DNA from: Candidatus Woesearchaeota archaeon
Lineage (GTDB): Archaea > Nanobdellota > Nanobdellia > Woesearchaeales > J110
Reading direction: 5' to 3'
NCBI GenBank assembly: GCA_003694805.1
Contig: RFJU01000027.1
Location: forward strand, 1 to 45,110
Length of the DNA stretch: 45,110 nucleotides
A program made the position numbers and the translations under genes. Of the stretch, positions 1,996-16,902 are shown piece after piece (the stretch's first letter is position 1; the number at the start of each line of letters is the position of its first letter). The notes under the pieces were generated by a model. The model made no database searches. It had not been told where the DNA came from and worked only from the letters and a program-made list of their open reading frames with translations.

Positions 1996-2070
1996 TGCCC
2001 CGTCCGGGATTTGAACCCGGGTCGCCGCCTCGAAAGGGCGGAATGATTGGCCGGACTACACCAACGGGGC
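1996..2070 (-). tRNA. tRNA-Glu (UUC)
   Basis: A 75-nt cloverleaf without intron. Acceptor stem GCCCCGT/ACGGGGC, anticodon stem CCGCC/GGCGG around loop CTTTCGA gives anticodon UUC. The T-loop is TTCAAAT and the discriminator is A; CCA is not encoded. A TATA-like box (TATTTAAAAA, 2121-2130) lies about 50 bp upstream. Confidence 0.95.
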
Positions 2071-3949: not shown

Positions 3950-4160
3950 CCTTGTCCATCTCTTCTCTGTCAACACCTCTCTTTCCCGGCTCAACCCACG
4001 CAAAAGCTCGGATGAAGAGAGCTTCCATATTATAAAAACATATCGCTACGTGGGACGAGAGGAAGACGGGAGCTAGGCGAGGGGGGAACAACGCTCACCA
4101 ATAACTTTAAAAAAAAGCGCTTGTTTTTTTTGCTGCGATAGAACCCAACAACTCAGCAAT

Positions 4161-4231
4161 GCACCCATGGTTTAGTGGTAGAACGCGAGCTTGCCAAGCT
4201 CGAGACGCGGGTTCGATTCCCGCTGGGTGCA
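4161..4231 (+). tRNA. tRNA-Gly (GCC)
   Basis: A 71-nt cloverleaf without intron: acceptor GCACCCA/TGGGTGC, anticodon stem CGAGC/GCTCG around TTGCCAA, T-arm GCGGG-TTCGATT-CCCGC, discriminator A. Its promoter is probably the A/T-rich CTTTAAAAAAAA near 4104-4115. Confidence 0.96.
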
Positions 4232-4314
4232 TCCACTGTTCCAAAGAGAAAAGCAGGCAGAAAAAGGCAGAATACTTAATTGCCGTACCACATTGCCGTA
4301 CCACCACTCAACGC

Positions 4315-5274: not shown

Positions 5275-5316
5275 TTTTTTGTTTTTTTTCTTTTTTTCTT
5301 TTCTTTTTTTTTATTT
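5275..5316 (+). terminator. T-rich transcription terminator
   Basis: An almost uninterrupted run of T with a few C lies 60 bp after the DUF5654 stop, in the convergent gap with the agmatinase gene. Oligo-T tracts are sufficient for intrinsic termination by archaeal RNA polymerase. It reaches the last codons of the agmatinase gene on the opposite strand, where it encodes part of the lysine tail. Confidence 0.6.
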
Positions 5317-6195
5317 CTTCTGCGATGCCAAAACACAAAGAGCATACACCAGCTTCGCAACGAAGTACGCATCGCCATGTACTTGCAAAGAAGGAGAAAA
5401 CTCAACAACATCCGCGCCAAGAACGTTCTTTTCCTCAAAGACGACGCGCAGCGCGTTCAAAGCCTCAAACCAAGACAAGCCGCCAGGCTCAGGCGTTCCC
5501 GTGCCCCGCACCACAGCAGGATCAAGCACGTCAACATCAAAAGAAAGATATACCTCGCGCTTCAACTTCTTGAGCTCGGCACGAAACTGCTCAAGATACG
5601 CGCTGTTCAAACCCTTGCTGGCACGGAAAGGAAGTGCACGTGCGTTCTTGCTTTTCTGCAATAACGAAAGCTCGTCACTATCGGCGCTGCGAACGCCAAA
5701 AACCAAGACGTTATGATGGGCAGAGCAACGCCTTGCAACACACGCATGATTAACAAACGATCCTTGCCATGAATACCTAAAATCTGCATGCGCATCAAAA
5801 ATCACAACATCAAAGCACTTGCCAGCGTCCCGGAAACCATCTGTTATCCCGATGGTGATTGCGTGATCGCCACCAAGAAAAAGAGGAAAGACACCGGGCG
5901 ATACTTCAGCAGCACGTCTGGCAACCGACGCGATTTTTAGCATAGCCGCCTTTGGCGCTAACGAAGAAACAGCAAGAACGTCTTGGGTTGCAATCCCTTC
6001 GTTCGCTGGCAGCGCGCCAAGCTCCACATCAAAGTCCTCAAGGTGAACAGACGCTTCAAGCACCGCCTTCCACCCGTCTTTTCCCCCCTTCCCAAAAGAA
6101 GGAGCAGACTCCCACGCGATAGGGATGATGTTGAAACGAGCATCCGCATCTGACCGCCCCATGAACTGAAGGCGGCGACCTTCTTTGTTCGTCAC
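5311..6195 (-). CDS. speB: Agmatinase / ureohydrolase family enzyme
   Basis: 294 residues, arginase/agmatinase fold. All binuclear Mn2+ ligand motifs are present: GGDH at 108-111, DAHAD at 134-138 and SFDVDVLDP at about 218-226, followed by GTPEPGGLSW. The family hydrolyses guanidino compounds to urea and an amine; agmatine to putrescine is the expected reaction in archaea, which usually make polyamines from arginine through agmatine. Its ATG overlaps the stop of the upstream deoxyhypusine synthase gene by four bases (ATGA), so the two are translationally coupled, and polyamine is the donor for deoxyhypusine. The exact substrate is inferred from context. Confidence 0.88.
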   Translation of the reverse strand: MTNKEGRRLQFMGRSDADARFNIIPIAWESAPSFGKGGKDGWKAVLEASVHLEDFDVELGALPANEGIATQDVLAVSSLAPKAAMLKIASVARRAAEVSPGVFPLFLGGDHAITIGITDGFRDAGKCFDVVIFDAHADFRYSWQGSFVNHACVARRCSAHHNVLVFGVRSADSDELSLLQKSKNARALPFRASKGLNSAYLEQFRAELKKLKREVYLSFDVDVLDPAVVRGTGTPEPGGLSWFEALNALRVVFEEKNVLGADVVEFSPSLQVHGDAYFVAKLVYALCVLASQKK

Positions 6196-7238
6196 GACGA
6201 TCCCCCCTCTTCTGCGAACGCTCCGCTAGCAACCAGGAGAGGAAAAAGAATTGTTGCATCTCCCACGACTTTAGCAAACGCGCCGTTCGTCTTCAATTTC
6301 CCCCACGTCATTGCTTCTTGATGATTCGCCCCCGCATTTGACCCGTCCTCCTCTTGAGCAGTAGTGATGTACACAGAAAATTCCCCTCCATCTCGAAAGA
6401 TGAACGCATTCGCAATATGGTGCTTGGGTACGCTACCTCCCAGGCAGACCATGCCTGCTTGCTCGGCGCCCAAAGCAAGGTCCGTTATTGCAACCACGTC
6501 ATCAGAAATGTCAATGGCAAACGACGGCTCTTGCTTTTTAAAAAAATAAATGAGGTCGCCCAAGGAACCATCGGTTAATGCAGGACAAAAAATAGGAATC
6601 TTGTTTTTAGCGCACCAATACACAAAAGAAGACTCACAACCATCGACGCCTTCGAGAGCAAGACCTGCCTCTTTACAGAACTGCGAAGGCGTTATAGGTT
6701 TGTTCTGTTCTCTTTGTTTGCGAAAGAGCTGAACCAATAACGGCCGAGTAAATCGCTCAAGTGCCAGGTATCGATCAGCAGGAATGAAAATATTCCCAGC
6801 ACGCATGACGCCAGAGTCAAAAAGTTGCTTTCCAGGAACATCAAAATGGCCAAGAACAAACGGCTTGAAGACTTTAATAAGATCCTCCTCGACCCCACCG
6901 GCAGTCGCGACTACCACGTCAACCAATTTTTTTTTGCACAAATACGTCACCGCTTCACGAACACCGGACGTGATCATGTTGCTCGTAAACCCAAAAAACA
7001 CTCTTGCTCTTGCTCGTTTCATCTTCCGTACAACCTCGGCTGCACGGAACAACTCAGTCGCTTGAAACCCCGAACTCCCCAACGATGCAAAAAAAGAAGC
7101 AAGATCGCCGCCCCGTTCATAGTCAAATCCTCTAACTTTAGGCCACCCATCAAGCGTGACTGTCTGCTCAACCTCGCCAACGCTTTTCTTTCCTTTCTTA
7201 AACAAGTCCAAATCCGAATATCGTTTGTGCACACTCAT
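6192..7238 (-). CDS. dys: Deoxyhypusine synthase
   Basis: 348 residues. DHS transfers the aminobutyl group of spermidine to a lysine of aIF5A using NAD+. Diagnostic segments: FGFTSNMITSGVRE (NAD site), DVVVATAGGVEEDL, FDSGVMRAGNIFIP, CPALTDGSLGD and the active-site LGGSVPKHHIANAF, in which Lys272 corresponds to the lysine forming the imine intermediate. Catalytic residues look intact. First gene of a two-gene unit with agmatinase. ATG preceded by GGAAGGTG; a TTTAAGG element about 70 bp upstream may be the promoter. Confidence 0.95.
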   Translation of the reverse strand: MSVHKRYSDLDLFKKGKKSVGEVEQTVTLDGWPKVRGFDYERGGDLASFFASLGSSGFQATELFRAAEVVRKMKRARARVFFGFTSNMITSGVREAVTYLCKKKLVDVVVATAGGVEEDLIKVFKPFVLGHFDVPGKQLFDSGVMRAGNIFIPADRYLALERFTRPLLVQLFRKQREQNKPITPSQFCKEAGLALEGVDGCESSFVYWCAKNKIPIFCPALTDGSLGDLIYFFKKQEPSFAIDISDDVVAITDLALGAEQAGMVCLGGSVPKHHIANAFIFRDGGEFSVYITTAQEEDGSNAGANHQEAMTWGKLKTNGAFAKVVGDATILFPLLVASGAFAEEGGSS

Positions 7239-7419: not shown

Positions 7420-10302
7420 TCACACAGCATTATGAGCATACAGGTGAGAAGCGCCGGATTTATTAGTGTTGTGGTCTGCTGTTTGACCATCAGGGTTATC
7501 GTGTTTTCCATCTTCCCGCAAAGCAGCCCTCGCCTCCCGACGAGACCGGACACCCAATTCTTGCCTGCAATACTTACTGATGGTGGAAGTAGACATGCTC
7601 ACGCCAAACAAGGCTTCCGCCTCTTTTTTAATATCCTTCAACGATTGGGGAGACGAACAGTACATGCTTGTAAGGAATTCTTTTAACGTTCCACCCCAAA
7701 GCTCGTTTCGAAACCGGTTGATACCGACTCGACCGAGCCGCTCTTTTGACAAGGAGGGCAGCGATGAATACACTTCCGTGTAGCCTCTTAGCACGTTCTG
7801 CTCATCCTTGCTCAACGTTGCACGAGGATTAGCGTTTACGCGAAGGACAACAGGAAGGGCTTGCTGCAAGTACGTTTCAGCAGAATCCTGCACTGCTCCT
7901 GTGTATAACGAGTTGCTAACGCTGCTCAGGACCGTTTCTAAATCAGAAGCCTCAGCCGTCTTACCGTGCTCTGAGCGGTTGTTTTTGGCTGCGTAGCTTC
8001 CCTCTACGCCTCTTGCGCCTCCCCGATTCTTCCTGTGCAACGGCTCATCTGAACTACCGATGAGTACCGGCGTCTCATCTTGTTGTTCAAGATACGATGC
8101 AACACGCTCAGCGCTTACGCGCAACACTTGGTTTTGATACACCACATCAGGATTGTCTGGGTAGGGAAGGTGATCCCTCACCTCCGGGAGAACAACCTCT
8201 TTTAAGAACCGAGCAATGTCGCCGGCTGACGGATTGTCAATCCCCGACCAAAGAAGCATGTCTTCTGCCATGTACCACAAACACCCCTCCCGTGTCTTGG
8301 GATTCCACTTCGGCATCGTATACTCCAGCACGCCATTTCTCAGTGCAATCTTGCTTGACGCTCCCTTCAAGACATCGTCAATGCGCAACCCGGGAATGGT
8401 CATTCCGCGAACTTCTTCCCTGAAACGATCTGTAGCGTCCGTGTCCTTGGTAGCATAGTGCGTCGAGGGTGCTCGTGCGCCTTTCGAGGCGTCTTCAACG
8501 CGCGCGTTGCTCTGACAATACCACAACCCTCCGAGGGAGAGGGCAGCAATAGCAGCAATGCCGGCCAACCCACCCAGAAGCCTGCTCGCGCCACAGTCCC
8601 TTAACGAAGGAAGCGCGCGCTTTTCCATCGGATTGCTTGTGCTCGTGCCCAGCGCCGCCGCTTCTTGTTGCCGGTCTAGGCGTTCATACGCTTGCGCACG
8701 TGGCTCTTGGGAAGGGCGTTCTGTTGTGCTTGCAGCGTCACAGGTGACAGGCTGTTCACCATCCAAAGGCTCCTCTCTTGCCATTGGCAGGGTTCTTTGT
8801 ACGACGCGTTCTTCCCTCGTCGCTGCGTGACCAACGACGGCCTCGGGCTCTCCCGCTTGCTCTTCACTTACAGAAGCAGGCTCTGCTTCCCCCATCTCAT
8901 TCATCTCATGCCACGCTTGTTTGGCCTCGGAGAACCAGCGCTGAAAGGCAACACCGCCTTTCTTCAAGCGTTCTTTTAACGATGAAACAAGGTACGAACC
9001 AGAAGACGCAGCAGATGATCTAGCAGAAGCAAGGATCTCGCTTACGACGGGGGCTGCTTTCGCGTACGTTCGCGCAACTCGCTCTCTCCAAGAACTGGGC
9101 AACCCTCGACCACCTATCAGGAGGGAACGGAGTTTTTCATTATCGCAAAGCGTCATGAACGAAGGCGTGTACGAGAACACATCTGCCAATGACAAGCTCA
9201 CCGGCACAGATCTGAACCGTGAAAAGTACTCTTGGCTAAGGAAGGCACGCAAGCGCAGGTAAGACCGGGTGTCCTCGACACGTATCTCGCCTCGCTTGGC
9301 CAGCGTCTCATGGAGTTCATCAAGGGTGAGCAAGTAATCTCGAAGTGTTGAAGACAAGTGCCCAACTAACTCTTGTGTCCTGAAATTATGCGGGAATCGG
9401 TCGGCAGGATGCGTAAGCCCGCTCGTAATATCCTCATGATAGCCCAGCTCTTCTTGCTCTTCTCTGGAGAGTGATTCATACCATCCTTGAGCGCGCTTTA
9501 ATTGATCTACAAAGAGGAGGTCTAAACGATTCAGCTTGCTGGCAAGTTTTCGCTCTTTGTGCACTAAACGCTTTTTTTTCACCCACAATGCGGCCTTACC
9601 CCAACTGCTCTGTGCATCGTATTCTGCAAGCATTCGCTCATGGAAGCGTTCTGCCCGAGCTGTGTCTTCTCTGAGCAAGAGCTCCAAGTTGCCCTCTGCG
9701 CGCGGTGACGGCGGTCTTGCCAATGCGTGGCCAGACCTCGCTCCGGTGCCATGATTCACTCCAGAAACGAATCTCCCTTCACTCATTGTGTGTTCTTGCT
9801 CCTTTTCTAAAAAAACATCTTGCTCATACGCGCCCTGGCTGTTATTGCTACTGGGGAGGCGTAAATGTTTATTTAAATGTTTCTTCCTTCGACGGGTTTT
9901 TTCCAAGAACGAATCGCCACCCAACGATCCTTCCTCGCTTGCACCCCTTCTCTGGCCTGCAAGGACGCGGTGCACATCCTTCATCAAACCTGCCTTTGCC
10001 CTTTGCTCAAGGAACGCTGAAACAAGGCGATGGTCAAGTTGTTTGCCGTCAGCATTGCGAAGCTTCTTTTCAAGGAAGGAGGCCTCTTCCCCAAACCACC
10101 ACGCACGTTCTTCCACGAACCCCTTCTTCAAAGATGAAGTGATGCCTTCCCGAAGAGGATCAAGCAAAGCAAACGCTGGCAAAGAACGCTGCAAGCTCCA
10201 CGAATTTCCTTGCAGGAAACGACGAAGCCCCCTATGACGATGCCTGTTATACATTCTCCTGTTTCCTAACATCCTTCCCCCCCTTGTTCCTTTCAAAAAC
10301 AT
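7420..10302 (-). CDS. Large island protein: charged N-terminus, one membrane segment, HTH-like C-terminus
   Basis: 960 residues; no family recognised. The first 570 residues are highly charged, predominantly helical and probably coiled. A single membrane helix lies near residues 573-595 (GLAGIAAIAALSLGGLWYC), followed by about 365 residues. Near the C-terminus (about 890-935) EALFGVSMSTSTISKYCRQE has the rhythm of a helix-turn-helix (alpha-turn with ST-S-T-IS recognition helix). ATG with Shine-Dalgarno GGAAGG seven bases upstream. It is the last gene of the accessory island, 35 bp after the 219-residue protein. A DNA-binding-like domain on the far side of a membrane helix from the N-terminal region is odd. 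Function unknown. Confidence 0.75.
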   Translation of the reverse strand: MFLKGTRGGRMLGNRRMYNRHRHRGLRRFLQGNSWSLQRSLPAFALLDPLREGITSSLKKGFVEERAWWFGEEASFLEKKLRNADGKQLDHRLVSAFLEQRAKAGLMKDVHRVLAGQRRGASEEGSLGGDSFLEKTRRRKKHLNKHLRLPSSNNSQGAYEQDVFLEKEQEHTMSEGRFVSGVNHGTGARSGHALARPPSPRAEGNLELLLREDTARAERFHERMLAEYDAQSSWGKAALWVKKKRLVHKERKLASKLNRLDLLFVDQLKRAQGWYESLSREEQEELGYHEDITSGLTHPADRFPHNFRTQELVGHLSSTLRDYLLTLDELHETLAKRGEIRVEDTRSYLRLRAFLSQEYFSRFRSVPVSLSLADVFSYTPSFMTLCDNEKLRSLLIGGRGLPSSWRERVARTYAKAAPVVSEILASARSSAASSGSYLVSSLKERLKKGGVAFQRWFSEAKQAWHEMNEMGEAEPASVSEEQAGEPEAVVGHAATREERVVQRTLPMAREEPLDGEQPVTCDAASTTERPSQEPRAQAYERLDRQQEAAALGTSTSNPMEKRALPSLRDCGASRLLGGLAGIAAIAALSLGGLWYCQSNARVEDASKGARAPSTHYATKDTDATDRFREEVRGMTIPGLRIDDVLKGASSKIALRNGVLEYTMPKWNPKTREGCLWYMAEDMLLWSGIDNPSAGDIARFLKEVVLPEVRDHLPYPDNPDVVYQNQVLRVSAERVASYLEQQDETPVLIGSSDEPLHRKNRGGARGVEGSYAAKNNRSEHGKTAEASDLETVLSSVSNSLYTGAVQDSAETYLQQALPVVLRVNANPRATLSKDEQNVLRGYTEVYSSLPSLSKERLGRVGINRFRNELWGGTLKEFLTSMYCSSPQSLKDIKKEAEALFGVSMSTSTISKYCRQELGVRSRREARAALREDGKHDNPDGQTADHNTNKSGASHLYAHNAV

Positions 10303-10337
10303 GCAAATCCTTCCTTTTCAAGGAGTCATAGTCTCTC

Positions 10338-10997
10338 TTAAGTATTTGTCGCTCGTTCCGCATCTTCTTCTTGCACCTTCAGAGCGTACTTTTGGTGCAA
10401 CGTCCTTAACTCGTCCTTTGCCCAACGAATCGTGTTCTCAAGCTGAAAGACGCGCCTCTCCAACGCCGCCGAGCGCTTGAGCAGCTGCGCATACTGCTCC
10501 CTCACAGACGAGAGCCCCTGCCTCGTTGCGTAAGCAGCAAGATCCGCCAACTGCTTTGCCTTATTGACCAATAAAGCATCATGCGAGTACACTTTGCTCA
10601 AAAAGCTGCTTGCTGTTGAGAGTATTGTCAAATTCTGCACAAAAAGAACATCTTTTTCTCTTAAAAACCCGAAGTCATCGTACTGAAACACACCAACCCG
10701 CTCCCTCATTTTTTCAAACGCGTCATCATTGAGAGAACGAACCAACCCCTCGATGTTCTGGAAAAATTGGAGGCTTGCTAAATGATAGTTTTCCGAATCA
10801 GATCGCTCACTCGGCGCTGTGTCCCTGCTCGCATGCTGAACCTCTTGTGCGTCTAAAGACTGTTCTAACAAAGTAATTATTCCTATCCGTTCCTCGAAAG
10901 GACTAGCTCCCGAGCGGGTTCCCTCTTCAGCGTTACGCGCTGACGGCGCCGCTTCAAACTCGTCACGCCCCCCAGCATCTACTCTTGCCTCAACCAC
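10338..10997 (-). CDS. Island protein with C-terminal coiled coil, 219 aa
   Basis: Not recognised. The N-terminal 70 residues are acidic, Ser/Ala-rich and likely disordered; residues about 75-140 look globular and helical; the last 70 (SAALERRVFQLENTIRWAKD) form a clear heptad-type coiled coil. No membrane segment. GTG start with AAGGAGGG nine bases upstream; only 13 bp separate it from the end of the AAA+ gene, so it is in the same operon. A partner or adaptor of the AAA+ ATPase is a reasonable guess from position only. Confidence 0.75.
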   Translation of the reverse strand: MVEARVDAGGRDEFEAAPSARNAEEGTRSGASPFEERIGIITLLEQSLDAQEVQHASRDTAPSERSDSENYHLASLQFFQNIEGLVRSLNDDAFEKMRERVGVFQYDDFGFLREKDVLFVQNLTILSTASSFLSKVYSHDALLVNKAKQLADLAAYATRQGLSSVREQYAQLLKRSAALERRVFQLENTIRWAKDELRTLHQKYALKVQEEDAERATNT

Positions 10998-11010
10998 GCT
11001 AACGCCCTCC

Positions 11011-12549
11011 TTATACGCCTCCCTCCACGACCTTTTCTGGCACGACTCTCTTCTCCGCCCCGAGCCGCATTAGCTCAGCAAACAACACCTCATCTGTAAT
11101 ACTCCCCGCGAGCTCCCGGAGCCGTTTTTGACGCTCCTCCTTCGGAAGCGTTGGAACACCAATAGGAATGCACGATGGTAGCGCCTTTTGCCGGAGCAAC
11201 TTCACAATATTTTGCACTTGCCTCCCCGAGAGGCCAAGCGACTTGCTCACCATCCCCAGCCGTTTCCACGCGTGAACCCGAGCAAAACCAGACGCAATAC
11301 ACGGGGCAAGATGCACCTTCCATAACTCTTCATACTCCACAGCAGTTCTGGGACCGTGCGCCTCAACAATGGAAACACGATCCAGCACTGCGTAGTCAAG
11401 CATTTCTTTAAAATTCCCATTAAACACAAAAAACGCATTGGGATACGGCAACTGGCGGTGACCACTCAACCGATTAAGGAGCTCGTTCAACGTCTTTTCA
11501 TCCTCCTTAGTATCCCTGTCAGGGTTGCGACGGAAAAATACTGATTCAGCATCATGGCACGTCACGTAATACGCTGCCTCGCCTGATGCTATCTCATCAA
11601 AGATAGTTGCGAGCCGCCCAACAGATTCATTTACATACTTGGACTTGAACGTGTTGCTGATGTCAAGAACGCGCAACTCCCTTTTTTCTTGCTTCATAAT
11701 CTCAGCAAGCTCTCGAGCAACTAAGGTTGTTCCAAATGATTTGCCACACCCTGGAGGACCCAAAATCAGAATTGCCGGGACAGGCTCGCCAGGTTCAGCA
11801 AGATCGTTTGTTTTCGTTTCAGGATCATAAAATCTCAAATAGTTCGCTCCAGCCCAAAGAGCCCGCATCATCTCCTCATTCCCGATCATCTTCTTCTTGT
11901 ACTTGCTACTTTTTGAAGCCGCACCATCGACAGAAGCAACACAAGCGCTCGCTGAAGAACCTTCCCCAATCCCCTCCCCGAGCCGTTGCGTGTCCTTTGA
12001 AAATCCTAAAAACCGCTGGTTACCGATGAGAACTTCCAAATCATGAACGTTTTTGGCCAAGCCAGAAAAGGCCCCATTCTTCTTAGCCAGCCATCTTTGC
12101 GTATCACGAGGAAGCCAATCGAGAAAAGAGCGGCACACATCCTCTGAAGAATAGCTTTCAATCGCATTATACCTGCTCCCCTCAACGAACGAGGCCAAAA
12201 TCTTCGCGGCGAGCTGGACTTGAGGACGAAGTGGCGCCCCGCCACGAACGCTATACTCTATCGATGGAAACAATCCTTGTCTACGTACCACGCCATTCTT
12301 AGCGTACTTGGCTGCAAGACTCAAGGCAAGCACATTCTCAAAATCATTCACAACAAGACGATCCTCACTGTGCTGAAACAACTGCTCCTTTGCAAACACA
12401 GACGAGAGTGCACAGTACACCCCAAAAAAAGACTGCAAATCATTAGGAATCGTCTCGACTGGCCGATACAACGTAGCTTCCAGCAAGAGGTCCTTTGCAG
12501 CGGCAGCCCCCTGCTCAAGGTCGTTAACGGTAACTTCGAGTTTTGACAT
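11011..12549 (-). CDS. AAA+ ATPase with altered Walker B (island gene)
   Basis: About 512 residues. The N-terminal half is a helical domain of unknown type. The AAA+ module is plain: Walker A GPPGCGKS near residues 262-270, a pore-loop-like FKSKYVNESVG, the Walker B region YYVTCHDAESVFFRR, sensor-1-like FVFNGNF, and Arg in AVLDRVS as a candidate arginine finger. The Walker B region lacks the usual D-E pair. Two adjacent ATGs at 12552/12549 preceded by AGGAGAAGG are the better start; a TTG at 12618 overlapping the upstream stop would add 23 residues. By fold it remodels or unfolds a protein partner; the substrate is unknown. Central gene of the island. Confidence 0.85.
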   Translation of the reverse strand: MSKLEVTVNDLEQGAAAAKDLLLEATLYRPVETIPNDLQSFFGVYCALSSVFAKEQLFQHSEDRLVVNDFENVLALSLAAKYAKNGVVRRQGLFPSIEYSVRGGAPLRPQVQLAAKILASFVEGSRYNAIESYSSEDVCRSFLDWLPRDTQRWLAKKNGAFSGLAKNVHDLEVLIGNQRFLGFSKDTQRLGEGIGEGSSASACVASVDGAASKSSKYKKKMIGNEEMMRALWAGANYLRFYDPETKTNDLAEPGEPVPAILILGPPGCGKSFGTTLVARELAEIMKQEKRELRVLDISNTFKSKYVNESVGRLATIFDEIASGEAAYYVTCHDAESVFFRRNPDRDTKEDEKTLNELLNRLSGHRQLPYPNAFFVFNGNFKEMLDYAVLDRVSIVEAHGPRTAVEYEELWKVHLAPCIASGFARVHAWKRLGMVSKSLGLSGRQVQNIVKLLRQKALPSCIPIGVPTLPKEERQKRLRELAGSITDEVLFAELMRLGAEKRVVPEKVVEGGV

Positions 12550-12614
12550 CATCCTTCTCCTCGCCCTCTCAACACGCAAGCAATCTCCTACTGGCCCACT
12601 CACAACAAGCCGCG

Positions 12615-13811
12615 TCAAGTCAAGTACGACCGTACCGTCTCAGCGGCTTTTCGAGCACGAGCGAGCAGTTCCTTATCCGTCCTGCCCGACCTCTTGCGCG
12701 CACTATCTTCATCCTCCCCGGCCGCGAGTTTAGGAAGCACCGGGCTCACCAAAGGCCCTTCTCTATTCGCCCTGCGAACTACTTCTTCAGCACCCACAAT
12801 ATCGCCTCCAAGTGACATCATACATTTTGAGAGTGACTGAACGGATTCCAAGGTAGACTTGTACATGGAAGCGGACGTGTCATCCCCGTACAAGTCCCAA
12901 ATATCAAACAACTCTTCCTTGAGCCCTTCTAACTCACAGCAAATCTTGTACGCCAAATCCTCACGCTCTTCATGCCGGAGCTTCGGACCACGCCGGAAGC
13001 TGCACCGATGAGCCGTGCTTTCTAACTCACGGGTAACTTTGTAGAGTTCACGGCCGATATGGCGGTGCTGACGCTGACACTCCTGCAAAACCTTCGTAGC
13101 ACTGGACAAACCAGCCCTGTCGCCTTTTTTCTCTGCGAGGGCGATGTCCGCCTTTGCTTCTTCAATGAGCTTGGCGTACTCCTGCCTCTGCACTGCAAGC
13201 GACTCTGCCATTGCTTCAAGAGACTCTGCGCGGCCTACTAATTCATCAATGCCCGCCTCAAGCTCCGCGTGCAACTCGCGGTGATGGGCTTCCTCCTGCC
13301 TCATAAACGCAATGCGTTCATCAAACATCGCTGCGTATTCCTCTCTCACCCGAGGACTATAGCGCTGGATCAATGCAGCCTCAAACTGTTCTGCTCTGGC
13401 AGAAGCGGTTTTTTTCAAAAACTGAAGCTTCACCCTCTCGGTCAGGGTCAAGTACTTATCTAGTTTGGACTTCACCAAAGCATTCCCTATTTTTTCATTC
13501 ACTGTTTTGAACGCAGAATTAATTTCGTCAATGAGCGTCCCTGACAACTCATACGTTCGCTTACCTTCCTCAAACAATTCAACTTCCGACTTGTGCGCTT
13601 CCCAGTTCTCAGCCATGATTTCAGCTCGCTTTATAAGCACCTTCTTGTCAAACCCTGGATTTTTATGCTCCAAGTACTCCAAGCAGCGTTCGAGACGATC
13701 AAAAGGAAATTCAACTGCGGAATCGCCAACGCCCTCCACACAAGACGCTCTTTTGCTCAACACAGGCTCCATTTCATGCTCATCCATTGATGTCCGTTCA
13801 TCGAGACTCAT
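12615..13811 (-). CDS. Island coiled-coil protein, 398 aa
   Basis: Not recognised. Almost entirely helical and charged; residues about 170-280 form long coiled coils (EAMAESLAVQRQEYAKLIEE and following). A short disordered N-terminus and a basic Ser/Arg-rich segment near residue 370 flank it. No membrane helix and no enzyme motif. ATG preceded by AAGGAGG at ideal spacing. Its stop overlaps the possible TTG of the AAA+ gene, and its start overlaps the stop of the 263-codon ORF (ATGA), which ties it into the island operon. A structural or scaffolding role is plausible. Confidence 0.78.
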   Translation of the reverse strand: MSLDERTSMDEHEMEPVLSKRASCVEGVGDSAVEFPFDRLERCLEYLEHKNPGFDKKVLIKRAEIMAENWEAHKSEVELFEEGKRTYELSGTLIDEINSAFKTVNEKIGNALVKSKLDKYLTLTERVKLQFLKKTASARAEQFEAALIQRYSPRVREEYAAMFDERIAFMRQEEAHHRELHAELEAGIDELVGRAESLEAMAESLAVQRQEYAKLIEEAKADIALAEKKGDRAGLSSATKVLQECQRQHRHIGRELYKVTRELESTAHRCSFRRGPKLRHEEREDLAYKICCELEGLKEELFDIWDLYGDDTSASMYKSTLESVQSLSKCMMSLGGDIVGAEEVVRRANREGPLVSPVLPKLAAGEDEDSARKRSGRTDKELLARARKAAETVRSYLT

Positions 13812-14599
13812 TGACCAAAACCTCCTTCGTTGTTTTCCTCTCGTTCAACACCTGCTAGCGACGGTTGTATGGTGCACCCTGACAACCAAAAATTATGGAA
13901 TCGAGAGACTTCCTCCCTCCTCCCGAGATCAAATACTTGACAGAATCCACTATTCCTAAACGCCGGTAGTGCAGCACTTCCAGCGGCACATACTTCTTCT
14001 TCCAAAACGCTGTCGAGGGGAGCGACGCTGCAAACGCGCGAGGACCCCAAACCTGCATACGTGACCGCTCCACCACCTGCAACGCCTGAGGTGTCAATCC
14101 TGTCGTCGTTGCAACAACACCCCTTCTCGACGGGACTGCGAGGGAACGAAGCTTGCTCTCCAGCCCCAACACCTCGTCCGGACCAATACGTGCTTCTTCC
14201 CGATGCTTGCACTCCACAAAGTAGAGCTGCTGAGCTTTGGCGTTCTTTCTCGATGAGAAGCAAATGTCGATTTGCATTACTGAACGAATCCCCGATGCAG
14301 TTTGAAACGGAATACGAACATCGTGCTTCACTGTCCTGTATCCCAAGTCCCTCAGAACGTGCACCAACCAAAGCTCGAAGCGAAGCCATTTCTTCTCTCC
14401 TGCACTTTTTGTCATGCTCGACCCCTTGAGTGGTAGTATACACCAACTGCTTCAGCGAACGTTCCTCACCTCCATACGATCTCCCAGCACTAAAGCCAAG
14501 GTAAAAGATAATGCCGTACCGTACCAAGTGCCAAGCGACCCTTCCAGACGCCCGCATACACGCGAGGGATGCCCTCTGCAACGAATACGTAATACTCAT
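13808..14599 (-). CDS. 263-codon ORF enclosing the nuclease gene; N-terminal membrane segment
   Basis: Open from an ATG at 14599 to a TGA at 13808 in a frame different from the nuclease. The first 60 residues lie upstream of the nuclease and contain a likely membrane helix (WHLVRYGIIFYLGFSAGRSY). The rest overlaps the nuclease and is rich in Ser, Gly and Cys, as shadows often are. In favour of reality: it fills an otherwise unexplained 221-bp gap in the operon, it begins 37 bp after the 135-residue gene, and its stop overlaps the next ATG (ATGA). It may be a dual-coding gene, a membrane segment joined to the nuclease by a frameshift, or a chance ORF. Confidence 0.35.
   Translation of the reverse strand: MSITYSLQRASLACMRASGRVAWHLVRYGIIFYLGFSAGRSYGGEERSLKQLVYTTTQGVEHDKKCRREEMASLRALVGARSEGLGIQDSEARCSYSVSNCIGDSFSNANRHLLLIEKERQSSAALLCGVQASGRSTYWSGRGVGAGEQASFPRSPVEKGCCCNDDRIDTSGVAGGGAVTYAGLGSSRVCSVAPLDSVLEEEVCAAGSAALPAFRNSGFCQVFDLGRREEVSRFHNFWLSGCTIQPSLAGVEREENNEGGFGQ
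13855..14415 (-). CDS. Mrr-like PD-(D/E)xK nuclease (island gene)
   Basis: 186 residues. The opening EKKWLRFELWLVHVLRDLGY is the usual N-terminal helix of Mrr-type restriction endonuclease domains. Catalytic residues can be read as D50 (MQID), E68 and K70 (FVECKHREE), followed by VLGLESKLRSL and RGVVATTTGLTPQAL, the family's next strand and helix. Mrr-like enzymes cleave DNA, often modified DNA, and occur in defence loci. No methyltransferase is adjacent. The ATG has only a weak AGGGG upstream. The gene lies wholly within a longer ORF in another frame on the same strand (13808-14599). Confidence 0.85.
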   Translation of the reverse strand: MTKSAGEKKWLRFELWLVHVLRDLGYRTVKHDVRIPFQTASGIRSVMQIDICFSSRKNAKAQQLYFVECKHREEARIGPDEVLGLESKLRSLAVPSRRGVVATTTGLTPQALQVVERSRMQVWGPRAFAASLPSTAFWKKKYVPLEVLHYRRLGIVDSVKYLISGGGRKSLDSIIFGCQGAPYNRR

Positions 14600-14636
14600 G
14601 CTCTCAAAGCCCCCCTCGCCTCGTTGAATGCTGCAT

Positions 14637-15044
14637 TCAATCGTCCTCTTTCAACGATTCAATAGCCTTGTCTGCTGCCCGTGCACCTTTCACCACAATC
14701 TTTCTTCCCGCCTCCCGAAGCTTGAACGGGTGAAAACTATATTTAAGGAGCCTGGCACAGTCGCCCCATGTTGTGAATTCTCCGCCCTCCCTAACTAACC
14801 GCCCCTCACCGGTTTGTGTGTTGACTAAGTAGAGGTATACTTTATCCAAATCTCGCACCCGCTTCAATCGATACGAAAAAACATCTTCCGGAACGCCAAA
14901 ACCCGGCTTCACGTCAAAAAACGCGTACAAAGGCCTCTGAATATATTGTGGAATGACATCAAGATAGTCGCCAACCACAGCAGAGCCTGCAATGAGCGAT
15001 GAGATGAGCACGGGCTTCACTAGTCTCTCCAATGATTTCTTCAT
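14637..15044 (-). CDS. Small island protein with N-terminal hydrophobic segment
   Basis: 135 residues. Lys-rich N-terminus followed by a short hydrophobic stretch at about 9-27 (VKPVLISSLIAGSAVVGDYL), then a soluble domain including KVYLYLVNTQTGEGRLVREG, probably a small beta-rich fold. The N-terminus could be a signal peptide or an anchor; there is no lipobox cysteine. First gene of the island in transcription order, downstream of the antiporter gene. Upstream, AAAAATTAATTC is a poor TATA candidate, so the promoter is uncertain. Function unknown. Confidence 0.72.
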   Translation of the reverse strand: MKKSLERLVKPVLISSLIAGSAVVGDYLDVIPQYIQRPLYAFFDVKPGFGVPEDVFSYRLKRVRDLDKVYLYLVNTQTGEGRLVREGGEFTTWGDCARLLKYSFHPFKLREAGRKIVVKGARAADKAIESLKEDD

Positions 15045-15183
15045 GAAAACGAGAAATGAACGTGTTTTTGAATTAATTTTTCACAAACAAACCGAAACCC
15101 TTCCAACCCGAACCGAAAAAACCGGTGCAAAACAGGAGGAAACCACTAAACAAGAAAAAGCCGAAAAGACGAAACGACCGCAT

Positions 15184-16902
15184 TTACCTGTGCTTTTCAG
15201 CAGGGGGGTGTTGGTGCCCCAATTTTTTTCTCACCCGCAAATGCTCGACATGCTGTACTTGCTCACGCAAGAACTTGCTCACATCAAACTGATAATTCTC
15301 AATCATGGTAGCAATGTGCTTGCCGCCAAGAAAATGAGGCATCAAAACGTATGTAGCCCCCTCGTCGTAGAGTTTCAGTGCATCTTCAATTTGATGCGCT
15401 ACTACGATAATAATTGCACTACCCCCCTCTGCATGCACTTTATTGATGATGAGCAGGTTCGTATCAGGATCAGGAATTGTTGATATAACCATCTTGGCAC
15501 GTCCAAGGTTTAATTGATTCAACAGCTCGGGGTCTGTGGCATCGCCGTACTTGCACTCGATACTTTCTTTCGTCAACGCAACAATGGTGTCTGGGTTATA
15601 GTCAACAAGCAAATACCTCGCGCCCGCCCTCTTCAGCGCATTTAAGAGATCAAATCCAATGCGGTTATAGCCAAACATAACCACCTCATACGATTCAAAC
15701 TTCTTCATGCCATGATGCTCACGAGTTTTTCTTTTTCGCTCAAAGAGAGCAAGAAATCTTGCAAGAAAAGGGAAGGCTGACGTGCCAAACTTAATAAAGT
15801 AGGCCGACCCTGCAATCGTAATAATGCCGACGAGGGTTGTTAGTGAAAGCAAATCAGCAGGCACGTGGCCAAACCCCACTCCAATTGACAGAATAATCAA
15901 AGAAAACTCGCTGATTTGAGCCAAAGAAATTGCAGTGAGGAAACTCGTCTTTTTCGAATAACCAAGCAACCCAAGCAAGATGATAATGATGAGCGGCTTA
16001 ACCAATAAGACAAACGCACTCAATACTAGTGCTGGAAGGACATAACTGGAAACATTGGAGAAGACCATTTCTGAACCAAGAAAAACAAAGAACAAAATAA
16101 GAAAAAAGTCACGAAGCGTCTTTACTTTCGCACTAATCTCGTAGTGGAACGGAGAGACAGACAAAACAACTCCTGCAAGCAACGCACCAATCTCGAGTGA
16201 GAACCCTAAGTACTGCACCAACGCAGCCATGGCAAAACACCAACCGATGGAGAAGACAAACAAGTACTCTTGAGACCGAGCAATAAAGCGTTCAACTTTT
16301 GGAAATGTCTTATGTGCGATCAAGAACAGCATGCCAAGACCAAGAATTTTAAACAACGTCTTCGCAGCGACATCTGCAACAGCCCCCTGCTCGGTCAACG
16401 TGCCAAAAGCAACAAGCACGACAATGACGACCAAGTCCTGAACAAGAAGGACGCCCGTTGCGAGCCGACCGTGCAGAGTTTCTAAATCATGCTTGTCAGA
16501 AAGAAGCTTGAGCACGATAATAGTGCTGCTAAACGCCAATCCAAGCCCGACATACAGCGAGGGAACAAGAGAAAACCCAAGCAAAAGGCAAATCCCTGTA
16601 CCGAGCAGCGCTGTCAGAACAACTTGTACAAAGCCAACAATAAGGGAAACAACACCAATATCCCGAATAAGCCGCAAATTAAGATTTATCCCCACAATGA
16701 AGAGAAGAAACGCGACGCCAAGCTTTGAGAAAATGGCCAGCGTGTCGGAGCTCGTAACAACGCCGAGCAAAGGCCCGACAATAACGCCAGTCAAGATGTA
16801 CCCAATAATCACGGGTTGTCTGAAGAGTCGTAACAGTGTAGCCATGAACCAGGCCGAGATCAAAACCACACTAATCTCAATGAAAAGCTCGCTTCCAGAC
16901 AT
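15184..16902 (-). CDS. Kef-type (CPA2) cation/proton antiporter with TrkA-N domain
   Basis: 572 residues. Residues 1-385 contain about 12 membrane helices of the CPA2 fold: PVIIGYILTGVIVGPLLG opening, AFSSTIIVLKLL and LLVQDLVVIVV, where Gln-Asp replaces the Asp-Asp of electrogenic exchangers, as in K+-coupled Kef proteins. After a basic linker, a RCK/TrkA-N domain begins near residue 405 (VVMFGYNRIG, glycine pattern GxNRxG, ending in VDYN) and would bind NAD(H) to gate the channel part. Expected role: K+ or Na+ exchange for protons. A TATA-like box lies about 25 bp upstream of the ATG (16927-16937), consistent with a leaderless mRNA. Convergent with nothing; the island lies downstream. Confidence 0.93.
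   Translation of the reverse strand: MSGSELFIEISVVLISAWFMATLLRLFRQPVIIGYILTGVIVGPLLGVVTSSDTLAIFSKLGVAFLLFIVGINLNLRLIRDIGVVSLIVGFVQVVLTALLGTGICLLLGFSLVPSLYVGLGLAFSSTIIVLKLLSDKHDLETLHGRLATGVLLVQDLVVIVVLVAFGTLTEQGAVADVAAKTLFKILGLGMLFLIAHKTFPKVERFIARSQEYLFVFSIGWCFAMAALVQYLGFSLEIGALLAGVVLSVSPFHYEISAKVKTLRDFFLILFFVFLGSEMVFSNVSSYVLPALVLSAFVLLVKPLIIIILLGLLGYSKKTSFLTAISLAQISEFSLIILSIGVGFGHVPADLLSLTTLVGIITIAGSAYFIKFGTSAFPFLARFLALFERKRKTREHHGMKKFESYEVVMFGYNRIGFDLLNALKRAGARYLLVDYNPDTIVALTKESIECKYGDATDPELLNQLNLGRAKMVISTIPDPDTNLLIINKVHAEGGSAIIIVVAHQIEDALKLYDEGATYVLMPHFLGGKHIATMIENYQFDVSKFLREQVQHVEHLRVRKKLGHQHPPAEKHR

What the first reader, a model, noticed from the sequence alone, without database searches (positions are those of the whole stretch)
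7420..15044. Six-gene AAA+ / Mrr-like nuclease / coiled-coil / membrane island with no recognised counterpart
Seen: six minus-strand genes with near-zero spacing (ATGA and TTGA overlaps, gaps of 13, 35 and 37 bp), strong Shine-Dalgarno sites, an AAA+ ATPase, a PD-(D/E)xK nuclease, two coiled-coil proteins, a membrane-anchored small protein and a 960-residue membrane protein. Known: AAA+ ATPases combined with Mrr-type nucleases occur in defence loci. Inference: the set may be a membrane-associated nucleic-acid sensing or defence system in a DPANN archaeon. I recognise no named system with this gene order.
Basis: partly seen in the sequence, partly recalled or inferred. Interest (0 to 1): 0.78.

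Follow-up and report, generated by a model that had tools for sequence, protein, structure and literature searches.

The report
Membrane-linked ATPase and nuclease operon
A single-transcript gene cluster in an uncultivated Woesearchaeota-group archaeon encodes a Cdc48-like ATPase, coiled-coil proteins, a DNA-cutting-type enzyme and membrane anchors; its ATPase core recurs in the same gene order in many related archaea and in some bacteria, so it is a real and apparently undescribed system, but what it does (defence, or work on the cell envelope) is not proven.

Summary
The island is real and is a conserved gene system. It has seven genes, not six. The PD-(D/E)xK nuclease is 13855-14415; the ORF starting at 14599 is a separate small membrane protein in another frame. 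The ATPase probably starts at 12552, so the reported TTGA overlap is doubtful.

The ATPase belongs to a fast-diverging single-domain classical AAA family found in 51 of 353 genomes of the order (Woesearchaeales by inference from named relatives) and in seven genomes of other orders of the class. In 45 of 51 loci a 267-649 aa gene, usually helical, lies directly upstream. The nuclease family occurs in 13 loci and the 135-aa membrane protein family in 12, always upstream and on the same strand.

A homologous operon (coiled coil, ~375-aa protein, AAA, DUF6638) sits in Vibrio and rhizobia. The set is therefore not DPANN-specific, and I found no named counterpart. Relatives carry interchangeable neighbours: transglutaminase, YkuD, MoxR/vWA, kinase/PP2C, E1/JAB.

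Most likely it is a membrane-associated AAA remodelling machine controlling a nuclease, i.e. an NTP-dependent conflict system. This is inferred. Known defence genes are not clearly enriched nearby, and an envelope or housekeeping role stays open.

The parts
15071..15081 (-). AT-rich element AAAAATTAATT, possible archaeal TATA box of the island (leaderless first gene)
   Evidence: Sequence; 27-37 nt upstream of the g135 ATG and no Shine-Dalgarno before g135. Inference only.
14637..15044 (-). g135: small single-pass membrane protein (N-in/C-out predicted), motif GDxxDV after the membrane helix, then a short ...YLYLVNxxTG... segment
   Evidence: Profile hits (14 hits, 12 loci), all upstream of the AAA gene and co-oriented; membrane segment residues 13-31.
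14416..14599 (-). Unlisted seventh gene: start of a membrane microprotein (MSITYSLQRASLACMRASGRVAWHLVRYGIIFYLGFSAGRSYGG...). The frame stays open to 13808 (263 aa) across the nuclease; the overlapping part is probably not real protein
   Evidence: ORF. Similar small membrane genes at the same place in L071 (13238-13423), L024 (13708-13965), L031 (6692-7003) by eye. Codon score lower in the overlapping part than in the nuclease frame.
13855..14415 (-). g186: PD-(D/E)xK nuclease, Mrr_cat; QIDICF...YFVECK catalytic core intact
   Evidence: PF04471 E 1e-8; family present in 13 of 51 loci, always upstream and co-oriented.
12615..13811 (-). g398: helical/coiled-coil protein, the conserved partner gene directly upstream of the AAA gene
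   Evidence: 45 of 51 loci have a co-oriented gene of 267-649 aa there; sequence homology detectable only inside subgroups; a relative of the partner is modelled as a long helical hairpin.
11011..12552 (-). g535: single-domain classical AAA ATPase with a ~220-aa family-specific N-domain; Walker A GPPGCGKS, Walker B VTCHDAE, sensor-1 N402, R414, sensor-2-like SGR466 (residues numbered from TTG 12618)
   Evidence: PF00004; profile score 473 bits against about 80 for Cdc48-type ATPases; motifs; start correction.
10338..10997 (-). g219: small helical protein with C-terminal coiled coil; no detectable homologue, but several relatives also have a 110-200 aa gene in this position
7420..10302 (-). g960: orphan bitopic membrane protein; about 570 residues inside, one helix (575-593), about 365 residues predicted outside
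   Evidence: no match in Pfam or PDB even for the C-terminal part.

Best explanation
The island is one transcription unit for a membrane-associated AAA machine. A ring of the classical AAA ATPase (g535) uses ATP to remodel or release the coiled-coil partner (g398). Small N-in/C-out membrane proteins (g135, the 14599 microprotein) and the bitopic g960 tie the complex to the membrane. The PD-(D/E)xK nuclease (g186) is the output enzyme, cutting nucleic acid when the machine is triggered. The most likely purpose is conflict with viruses or mobile elements, using a fixed ATPase/coiled-coil core with exchangeable effector modules. Shown: the gene set, the ATPase family, the conserved order, the catalytic motif of the nuclease and the membrane segments. 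Inferred: ring formation, physical contact between the proteins, nuclease control, and the defence purpose.
For: Conserved pair of upstream gene plus AAA in 45 of 51 loci. Nuclease family in 13 loci and g135 family in 12, always upstream and co-oriented, in several branches of the ATPase tree. Same operon logic in other orders of the class and in Vibrio and rhizobia, where coiled coil (profile P 94%), ~375-aa protein (P 96%), AAA (E 1e-54 to 1e-62) and DUF6638 (P 99.8%) all match the archaeal L029/L067/L068 type. Patchy: 51 of 353 genomes. Fast divergence: the window ATPase is 17-22% identical to homologues while ribosomal protein L15e is 55-64% identical between many of the same genomes. Different subtypes, only about 24% identical in the AAA, occur within one genus, and one subtype lies at different places in sister genomes. 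Exchangeable neighbours of kinds known from conflict systems: E1/JAB, MoxR/vWA, transglutaminase, kinase/PP2C.
Against: No island protein gives a convincing PADLOC match. Flanks show few, scattered defence models and no baseline was run. The nuclease is found in only a quarter of loci and was not seen in the Vibrio operon (a small endonuclease-domain gene of unknown relation lies beside the Sinorhizobium one). Some members are plain two-gene units in a stable position (L085/L086/L090), which looks vertical. Relatives carry YkuD, an envelope-type enzyme. The window's Walker B has His in place of the first acidic residue, so ATP hydrolysis may be weak. The upstream partner's homology between subgroups cannot be shown by sequence.
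Confidence: 0.45

Rival explanations
1. A trans-envelope machine: the cytosolic ATPase and coiled-coil protein power assembly or movement of single-pass membrane proteins whose domains lie outside, for cell-surface remodelling, secretion, or uptake of nucleic acid from a host; the nuclease would process imported or exported nucleic acid.
For: Several single-pass proteins with predicted outside domains (families); a pair of YkuD-type proteins recurs downstream of the AAA gene in L025 and L079; tandem arrays of six paralogous small membrane proteins in L076 and L097; DUF2333 membrane protein behind the Sinorhizobium operon.
Against: No pilin, secretin, channel or transporter component was recognised in the island; E1/JAB and MoxR/vWA neighbours do not fit simply; fast replacement of subtypes within a genus is unusual for such a machine.
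Confidence: 0.25
2. A housekeeping or stress chaperone: a Cdc48-like unfoldase with a coiled-coil adaptor that maintains membrane proteins, with accessory enzymes joining by chance of operon shuffling.
For: Closest solved AAA domains are Cdc48/p97, AFG2 and VPS4; the bacterial operon lies in ordinary gene surroundings; a minimal two-gene version is syntenic in L085/L086/L090.
Against: Present in only 14% of genomes of the order; far faster divergence than a ribosomal protein; nuclease fixed in position.
Confidence: 0.2
3. A fragment of an integrated virus or mobile element.
For: A phage protein family of unknown function (phrog_3757) is the best-scoring profile for the AAA domain (E 4e-13); orphan genes g219 and g960.
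Against: Five scans of 2.9 million viral contigs and the phage records gave no relative; no integrase or capsid gene was recognised; flanked by chromosomal genes; GC like its surroundings.
Confidence: 0.07

Closest known systems
Unnamed bacterial AAA/DUF6638 operon (Vibrio parahaemolyticus NZ_CP062152.1; Sinorhizobium meliloti CP090106.1)
   Same: Homologous AAA ATPase with a co-oriented upstream gene; coiled-coil gene in the operon; membrane protein downstream in Sinorhizobium
   Different: The window lacks DUF6638 and the ~375-aa gene; it has the Mrr-type nuclease, g135 family, g219 and g960. The window AAA matches the Vibrio one only weakly (E 6e-5).
MoxR-vWA ternary conflict systems, above all the FtsH class (Kaur et al. 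2020, PMC7159879)
   Same: Classical-AAA protein plus helical proteins plus variable effectors; in relatives also MoxR and vWA (L027/L028 type) and E1/JAB (L022), as that paper describes for the FtsH class
   Different: The window has neither MoxR nor vWA; the AAA has a single domain and is not FtsH-type with an inactive second copy.
IetAS anti-phage system
   Same: AAA ATPase; weak hits to the IetA models (19 and 18 bits)
   Different: Far below the curated cut-off of 510 bits; no subtilisin-like partner in the island.
Type IV restriction, McrBC and CoCoNuTs (PMC11090510)
   Same: ATPase, coiled coils and a PD-(D/E)xK nuclease
   Different: Classical AAA (PF00004) rather than the McrB GTPase type; Pfam names no McrC; coiled coil and nuclease are separate genes.
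Type III CBASS (TRIP13/HORMA)
   Same: AAA with an SGR sensor-2-like motif; weak TRIP13 model hits
   Different: No HORMA protein and no CD-NTase in the island.

Membership tests
Fast-evolving AAA / upstream-partner operon family (defined here) | AAA profile score well above Cdc48 background | tested here: met
   473 bits against about 80 for Cdc48-type proteins
Fast-evolving AAA / upstream-partner operon family (defined here) | Gene of roughly 290-460 aa directly upstream and co-oriented | tested here: met
   g398 directly upstream; same in 45 of 51 loci, extremes 267 and 649 aa
Fast-evolving AAA / upstream-partner operon family (defined here) | Upstream partner homologous across subgroups | tested here: inconclusive
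   Profile-profile comparison links only members of the same subgroups
AAA/DUF6638 operon (bacterial type) | DUF6638 protein next to the AAA | tested here: not met
   No DUF6638 match in the window's genome, though the search rang in no control either; g219 and g960 have no Pfam match
MoxR-vWA ternary conflict systems | MoxR ATPase and vWA protein | tested here: not met
   No Pfam match to either among the island proteins; present only in relatives
MoxR-vWA ternary conflict systems | Exchangeable effector domains around a fixed NTPase core | tested here: met
   Variable neighbours across loci
IetAS | IetA above curated cut-off plus S8 protease | tested here: not met
   19 of 510 bits; no protease match
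McrBC / CoCoNuT | McrB-type GTPase with McrC nuclease | tested here: not met
   AAA is PF00004; nuclease is Mrr_cat, standalone
Mrr-like PD-(D/E)xK nucleases | Fold match and D...ExK catalytic residues | tested here: met
   PF04471 above gathering score; QID...VECK
Any defence system | Protection against virus or plasmid | not testable with these tools
   Needs an experiment
TelA / tellurite-type coiled coil | Match to PF05816 at the coiled-coil gene | tested here: not met
   No match near the island in 11 archaeal genomes and two bacterial records

The most novel reading that the evidence does not exclude
A previously undescribed class of multi-gene, membrane-spanning AAA machine shared by Woesearchaeota and some proteobacteria, with a fixed AAA/coiled-coil core and swappable outputs (nuclease, transglutaminase, L,D-transpeptidase, E1/JAB, kinase/phosphatase), used in conflict with viruses or with host and partner cells.
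Probability: 0.35. Interest if true: 0.85.

Novelty: new variant of a known kind. Interest (0 to 1): 0.6.

Why it matters
If right, it defines a widespread gene system that current defence and protein-family libraries name only in pieces, in archaea that cannot yet be grown, and it points to a homologue in tractable Vibrio and Sinorhizobium strains where the function can be tested. It would also extend 'fixed ATPase core, changing effectors' systems into DPANN archaea, where Kaur et al. reported few archaeal cases.

Tried and rejected
TelA-like identity of the coiled-coil protein: suggested by eye for the bacterial version, not supported by the PF05816 search; the follow-up hhalign used the longest ORF of L122, which may not be the TelA ORF, so it adds little. 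LysM-like domain in the g960 C-terminus: suggested by eye, no support in Pfam or PDB. Viral origin: five viral-contig scans and the phage records gave nothing. Direct genome-contig scan with the window ATPase: nothing; a closer subgroup alignment gave five named Woesearchaeota/archaeon contigs. The AlphaFold model of a relative's coiled-coil partner is a helical hairpin of modest confidence (mean pLDDT 60); its PDB matches were generic elongated coiled coils with E above 0.001. The AAA model was confident only in the AAA domain and returned p97/Cdc48, leaving the N-domain fold unresolved. Defence-island test by PADLOC on 103 flanking genes: no clear enrichment, no baseline available. Patchiness inside S. 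meliloti could not be judged, because the records holding the operon look like chromosomes filed as plasmids. A fused membrane-nuclease gene by frameshift was considered; relatives keep the two genes separate, so overlapping genes is preferred. Papers: no mention of DUF6638, one irrelevant mention of DUF2333.
Full report
What is there. The window lies in a 1.21-Mb genome (96% complete). Named relatives of the ATPase are Candidatus Woesearchaeota (four records; a fifth is titled only 'archaeon'), so the order is taken to be Woesearchaeales (inference). On the minus strand, between a Na+/H+ antiporter gene (15184-16902) and genes read as deoxyhypusine synthase and agmatinase (6192-7238 and 5311-6195, by inspection only), lie seven genes: g135 (14637-15044), a membrane microprotein starting at 14599, g186 (13855-14415), g398 (12615-13811), g535 (11011-12552), g219 (10338-10997) and g960 (7420-10302). 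Only g186 (Mrr_cat) and g535 (AAA) match Pfam above cut-off. GC content equals the surroundings.

The nuclease is not the 263-aa ORF that overlaps g398 by ATGA; it is the 186-aa ORF in another frame. The 263-aa frame begins with a membrane helix like the separate small genes beside the nuclease in L071, L024 and L031, and its downstream part reads like an out-of-frame nuclease. The AAA gene most likely starts at ATG 12552 behind GGCGAGGAGAAGG. g960 has one membrane helix. g135 has no Shine-Dalgarno and an AT-rich box at the right distance for a leaderless transcript.

The ATPase family. A profile of ten relatives separates this family (above about 113 bits) from Cdc48-type ATPases (about 80-86 bits, with three proteins at 93-100 bits left undecided) and finds it in 51 of 353 genomes of the order (my count from the listed matches). 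A second profile, used in an even draw from the class, adds seven genomes outside the order. Some genomes carry two copies (G132, G251). Members share Walker A, sensor-1 Asn, an arginine and mostly an SGR motif. The window's nearest relative is L071. Divergence is fast: the ten seed ATPases are 17-22% identical to the window's, whereas L15e is 55-64% identical between many of the same genomes.

The neighbourhood. Directly upstream of the AAA there is a co-oriented gene in 45 of 51 loci; most are 286-459 aa, the extremes are 267 aa (cut by a contig end) and 649 aa. Sequence similarity is detectable only within subgroups. In the loci examined the gene is usually highly helical; in the L028/L029 type it is instead the ~375-aa protein, with the coiled coil one gene further up. 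A model of one subgroup is a long helical hairpin. A nuclease profile finds 13 loci and a g135 profile 12 loci, every one upstream and on the AAA strand; the nuclease occurs in several branches of the AAA tree. Downstream genes vary: DUF6638 in 11 loci (cluster; L029 identified), transglutaminase-core proteins, YkuD pairs, MoxR-like and vWA-like proteins, PP2C and protein kinase, E1, JAB-like and two small paralogous proteins, and tandem arrays of small membrane proteins. g219 and g960 have no detectable homologue in any locus.

Bacterial relatives. tblastn of two archaeal queries, DUF6638 and AAA, against 72,556 plasmid records returned the same ten records for each (Vibrio, Sinorhizobium, Shinella, Rhizobium), with the two genes a few kilobases apart or less. 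The Vibrio and Sinorhizobium loci are operons of coiled coil, ~375-aa protein, AAA, DUF6638 (in Sinorhizobium with an endonuclease-domain gene and a transposase between the last two), followed in Sinorhizobium by DUF2333. All four components match archaeal L029/L067/L068, and L123 from another order of the class carries the same series. The window is a divergent, nuclease-bearing branch of this larger family.

How it may work. By analogy with Cdc48/p97-type AAA proteins the ATPase should form a ring that pulls on a partner; the constant neighbour is the upstream coiled-coil protein. Charge distribution puts the small membrane proteins N-in/C-out, so the machine probably sits on the inner face of the membrane with outside sensors or anchors. 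The nuclease keeps its catalytic residues and is the likeliest output. Fast divergence, patchy occurrence, subtype mixing within one genus and exchangeable enzymes of the kinds listed for NTP-dependent conflict systems (PMC7159879) point to conflict, most likely with viruses or mobile elements. This step is inference. Against it, known defence models are not clearly enriched in the flanks, YkuD-type neighbours suggest the envelope, and some members look stably inherited.

Verdict. Real, conserved, apparently undescribed as a unit; function open. I put about 0.93 on 'conserved gene system', 0.45 on the conflict reading, 0.25 on an envelope machine and 0.2 on a housekeeping chaperone.

Noticed in passing
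L022:419-7601 (minus strand): Downstream of the AAA gene: a JAB-like protein (weak Prok-JAB match), a ThiF-type E1, two related ~400-aa proteins and two small paralogous proteins (132 and 148 aa) that might be ubiquitin-like modifiers; a possible archaeal conjugation cassette.
   Followed up: partly
L076:1932-6610; L097:3495-7440: Tandem arrays of six paralogous ~200-aa membrane-anchored or lipoprotein-like proteins directly behind or near the AAA gene.
   Followed up: no
L087:8537-8770, L095:13326-13559, L096:13325-13561: A conserved 77-78 aa protein with two hydrophobic stretches, holin-like by eye, next to the nuclease gene; a possible membrane effector.
   Followed up: no
L028:3398-7792 and L027, L062, L064, L065: MoxR-like 766-aa ATPase, a ~230-270-aa protein and a vWA-like 469-aa protein conserved beside the AAA/DUF6638 genes in Woesearchaeota.
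   Followed up: partly
L098:11107-15377, L092, L095, L100: Behind the transglutaminase gene: an opposite-strand TrmB-type regulator, a ~710-865 aa protein of unknown function, a PP2C phosphatase and a protein kinase, largely syntenic in these loci.
   Followed up: partly
L085, L086, L090: A minimal two-gene version (coiled coil plus short ~399-aa AAA) in a stable, syntenic position, which looks vertically inherited.
   Followed up: partly
L025:2393-4743, L079:4716-8284: A pair of proteins, one or both with a YkuD L,D-transpeptidase domain, recurs behind the AAA gene in archaea that are thought to lack peptidoglycan.
   Followed up: partly
window 13808-14599: 263-aa ORF overlapping the whole nuclease gene in another frame and ending in an ATGA overlap with the next gene; only its first ~60 residues look real.
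   Followed up: partly
window 1996-2070 and 4160-4235: tRNA-Glu (ttc) and tRNA-Gly (gcc) genes near the left end of the window.
   Followed up: no
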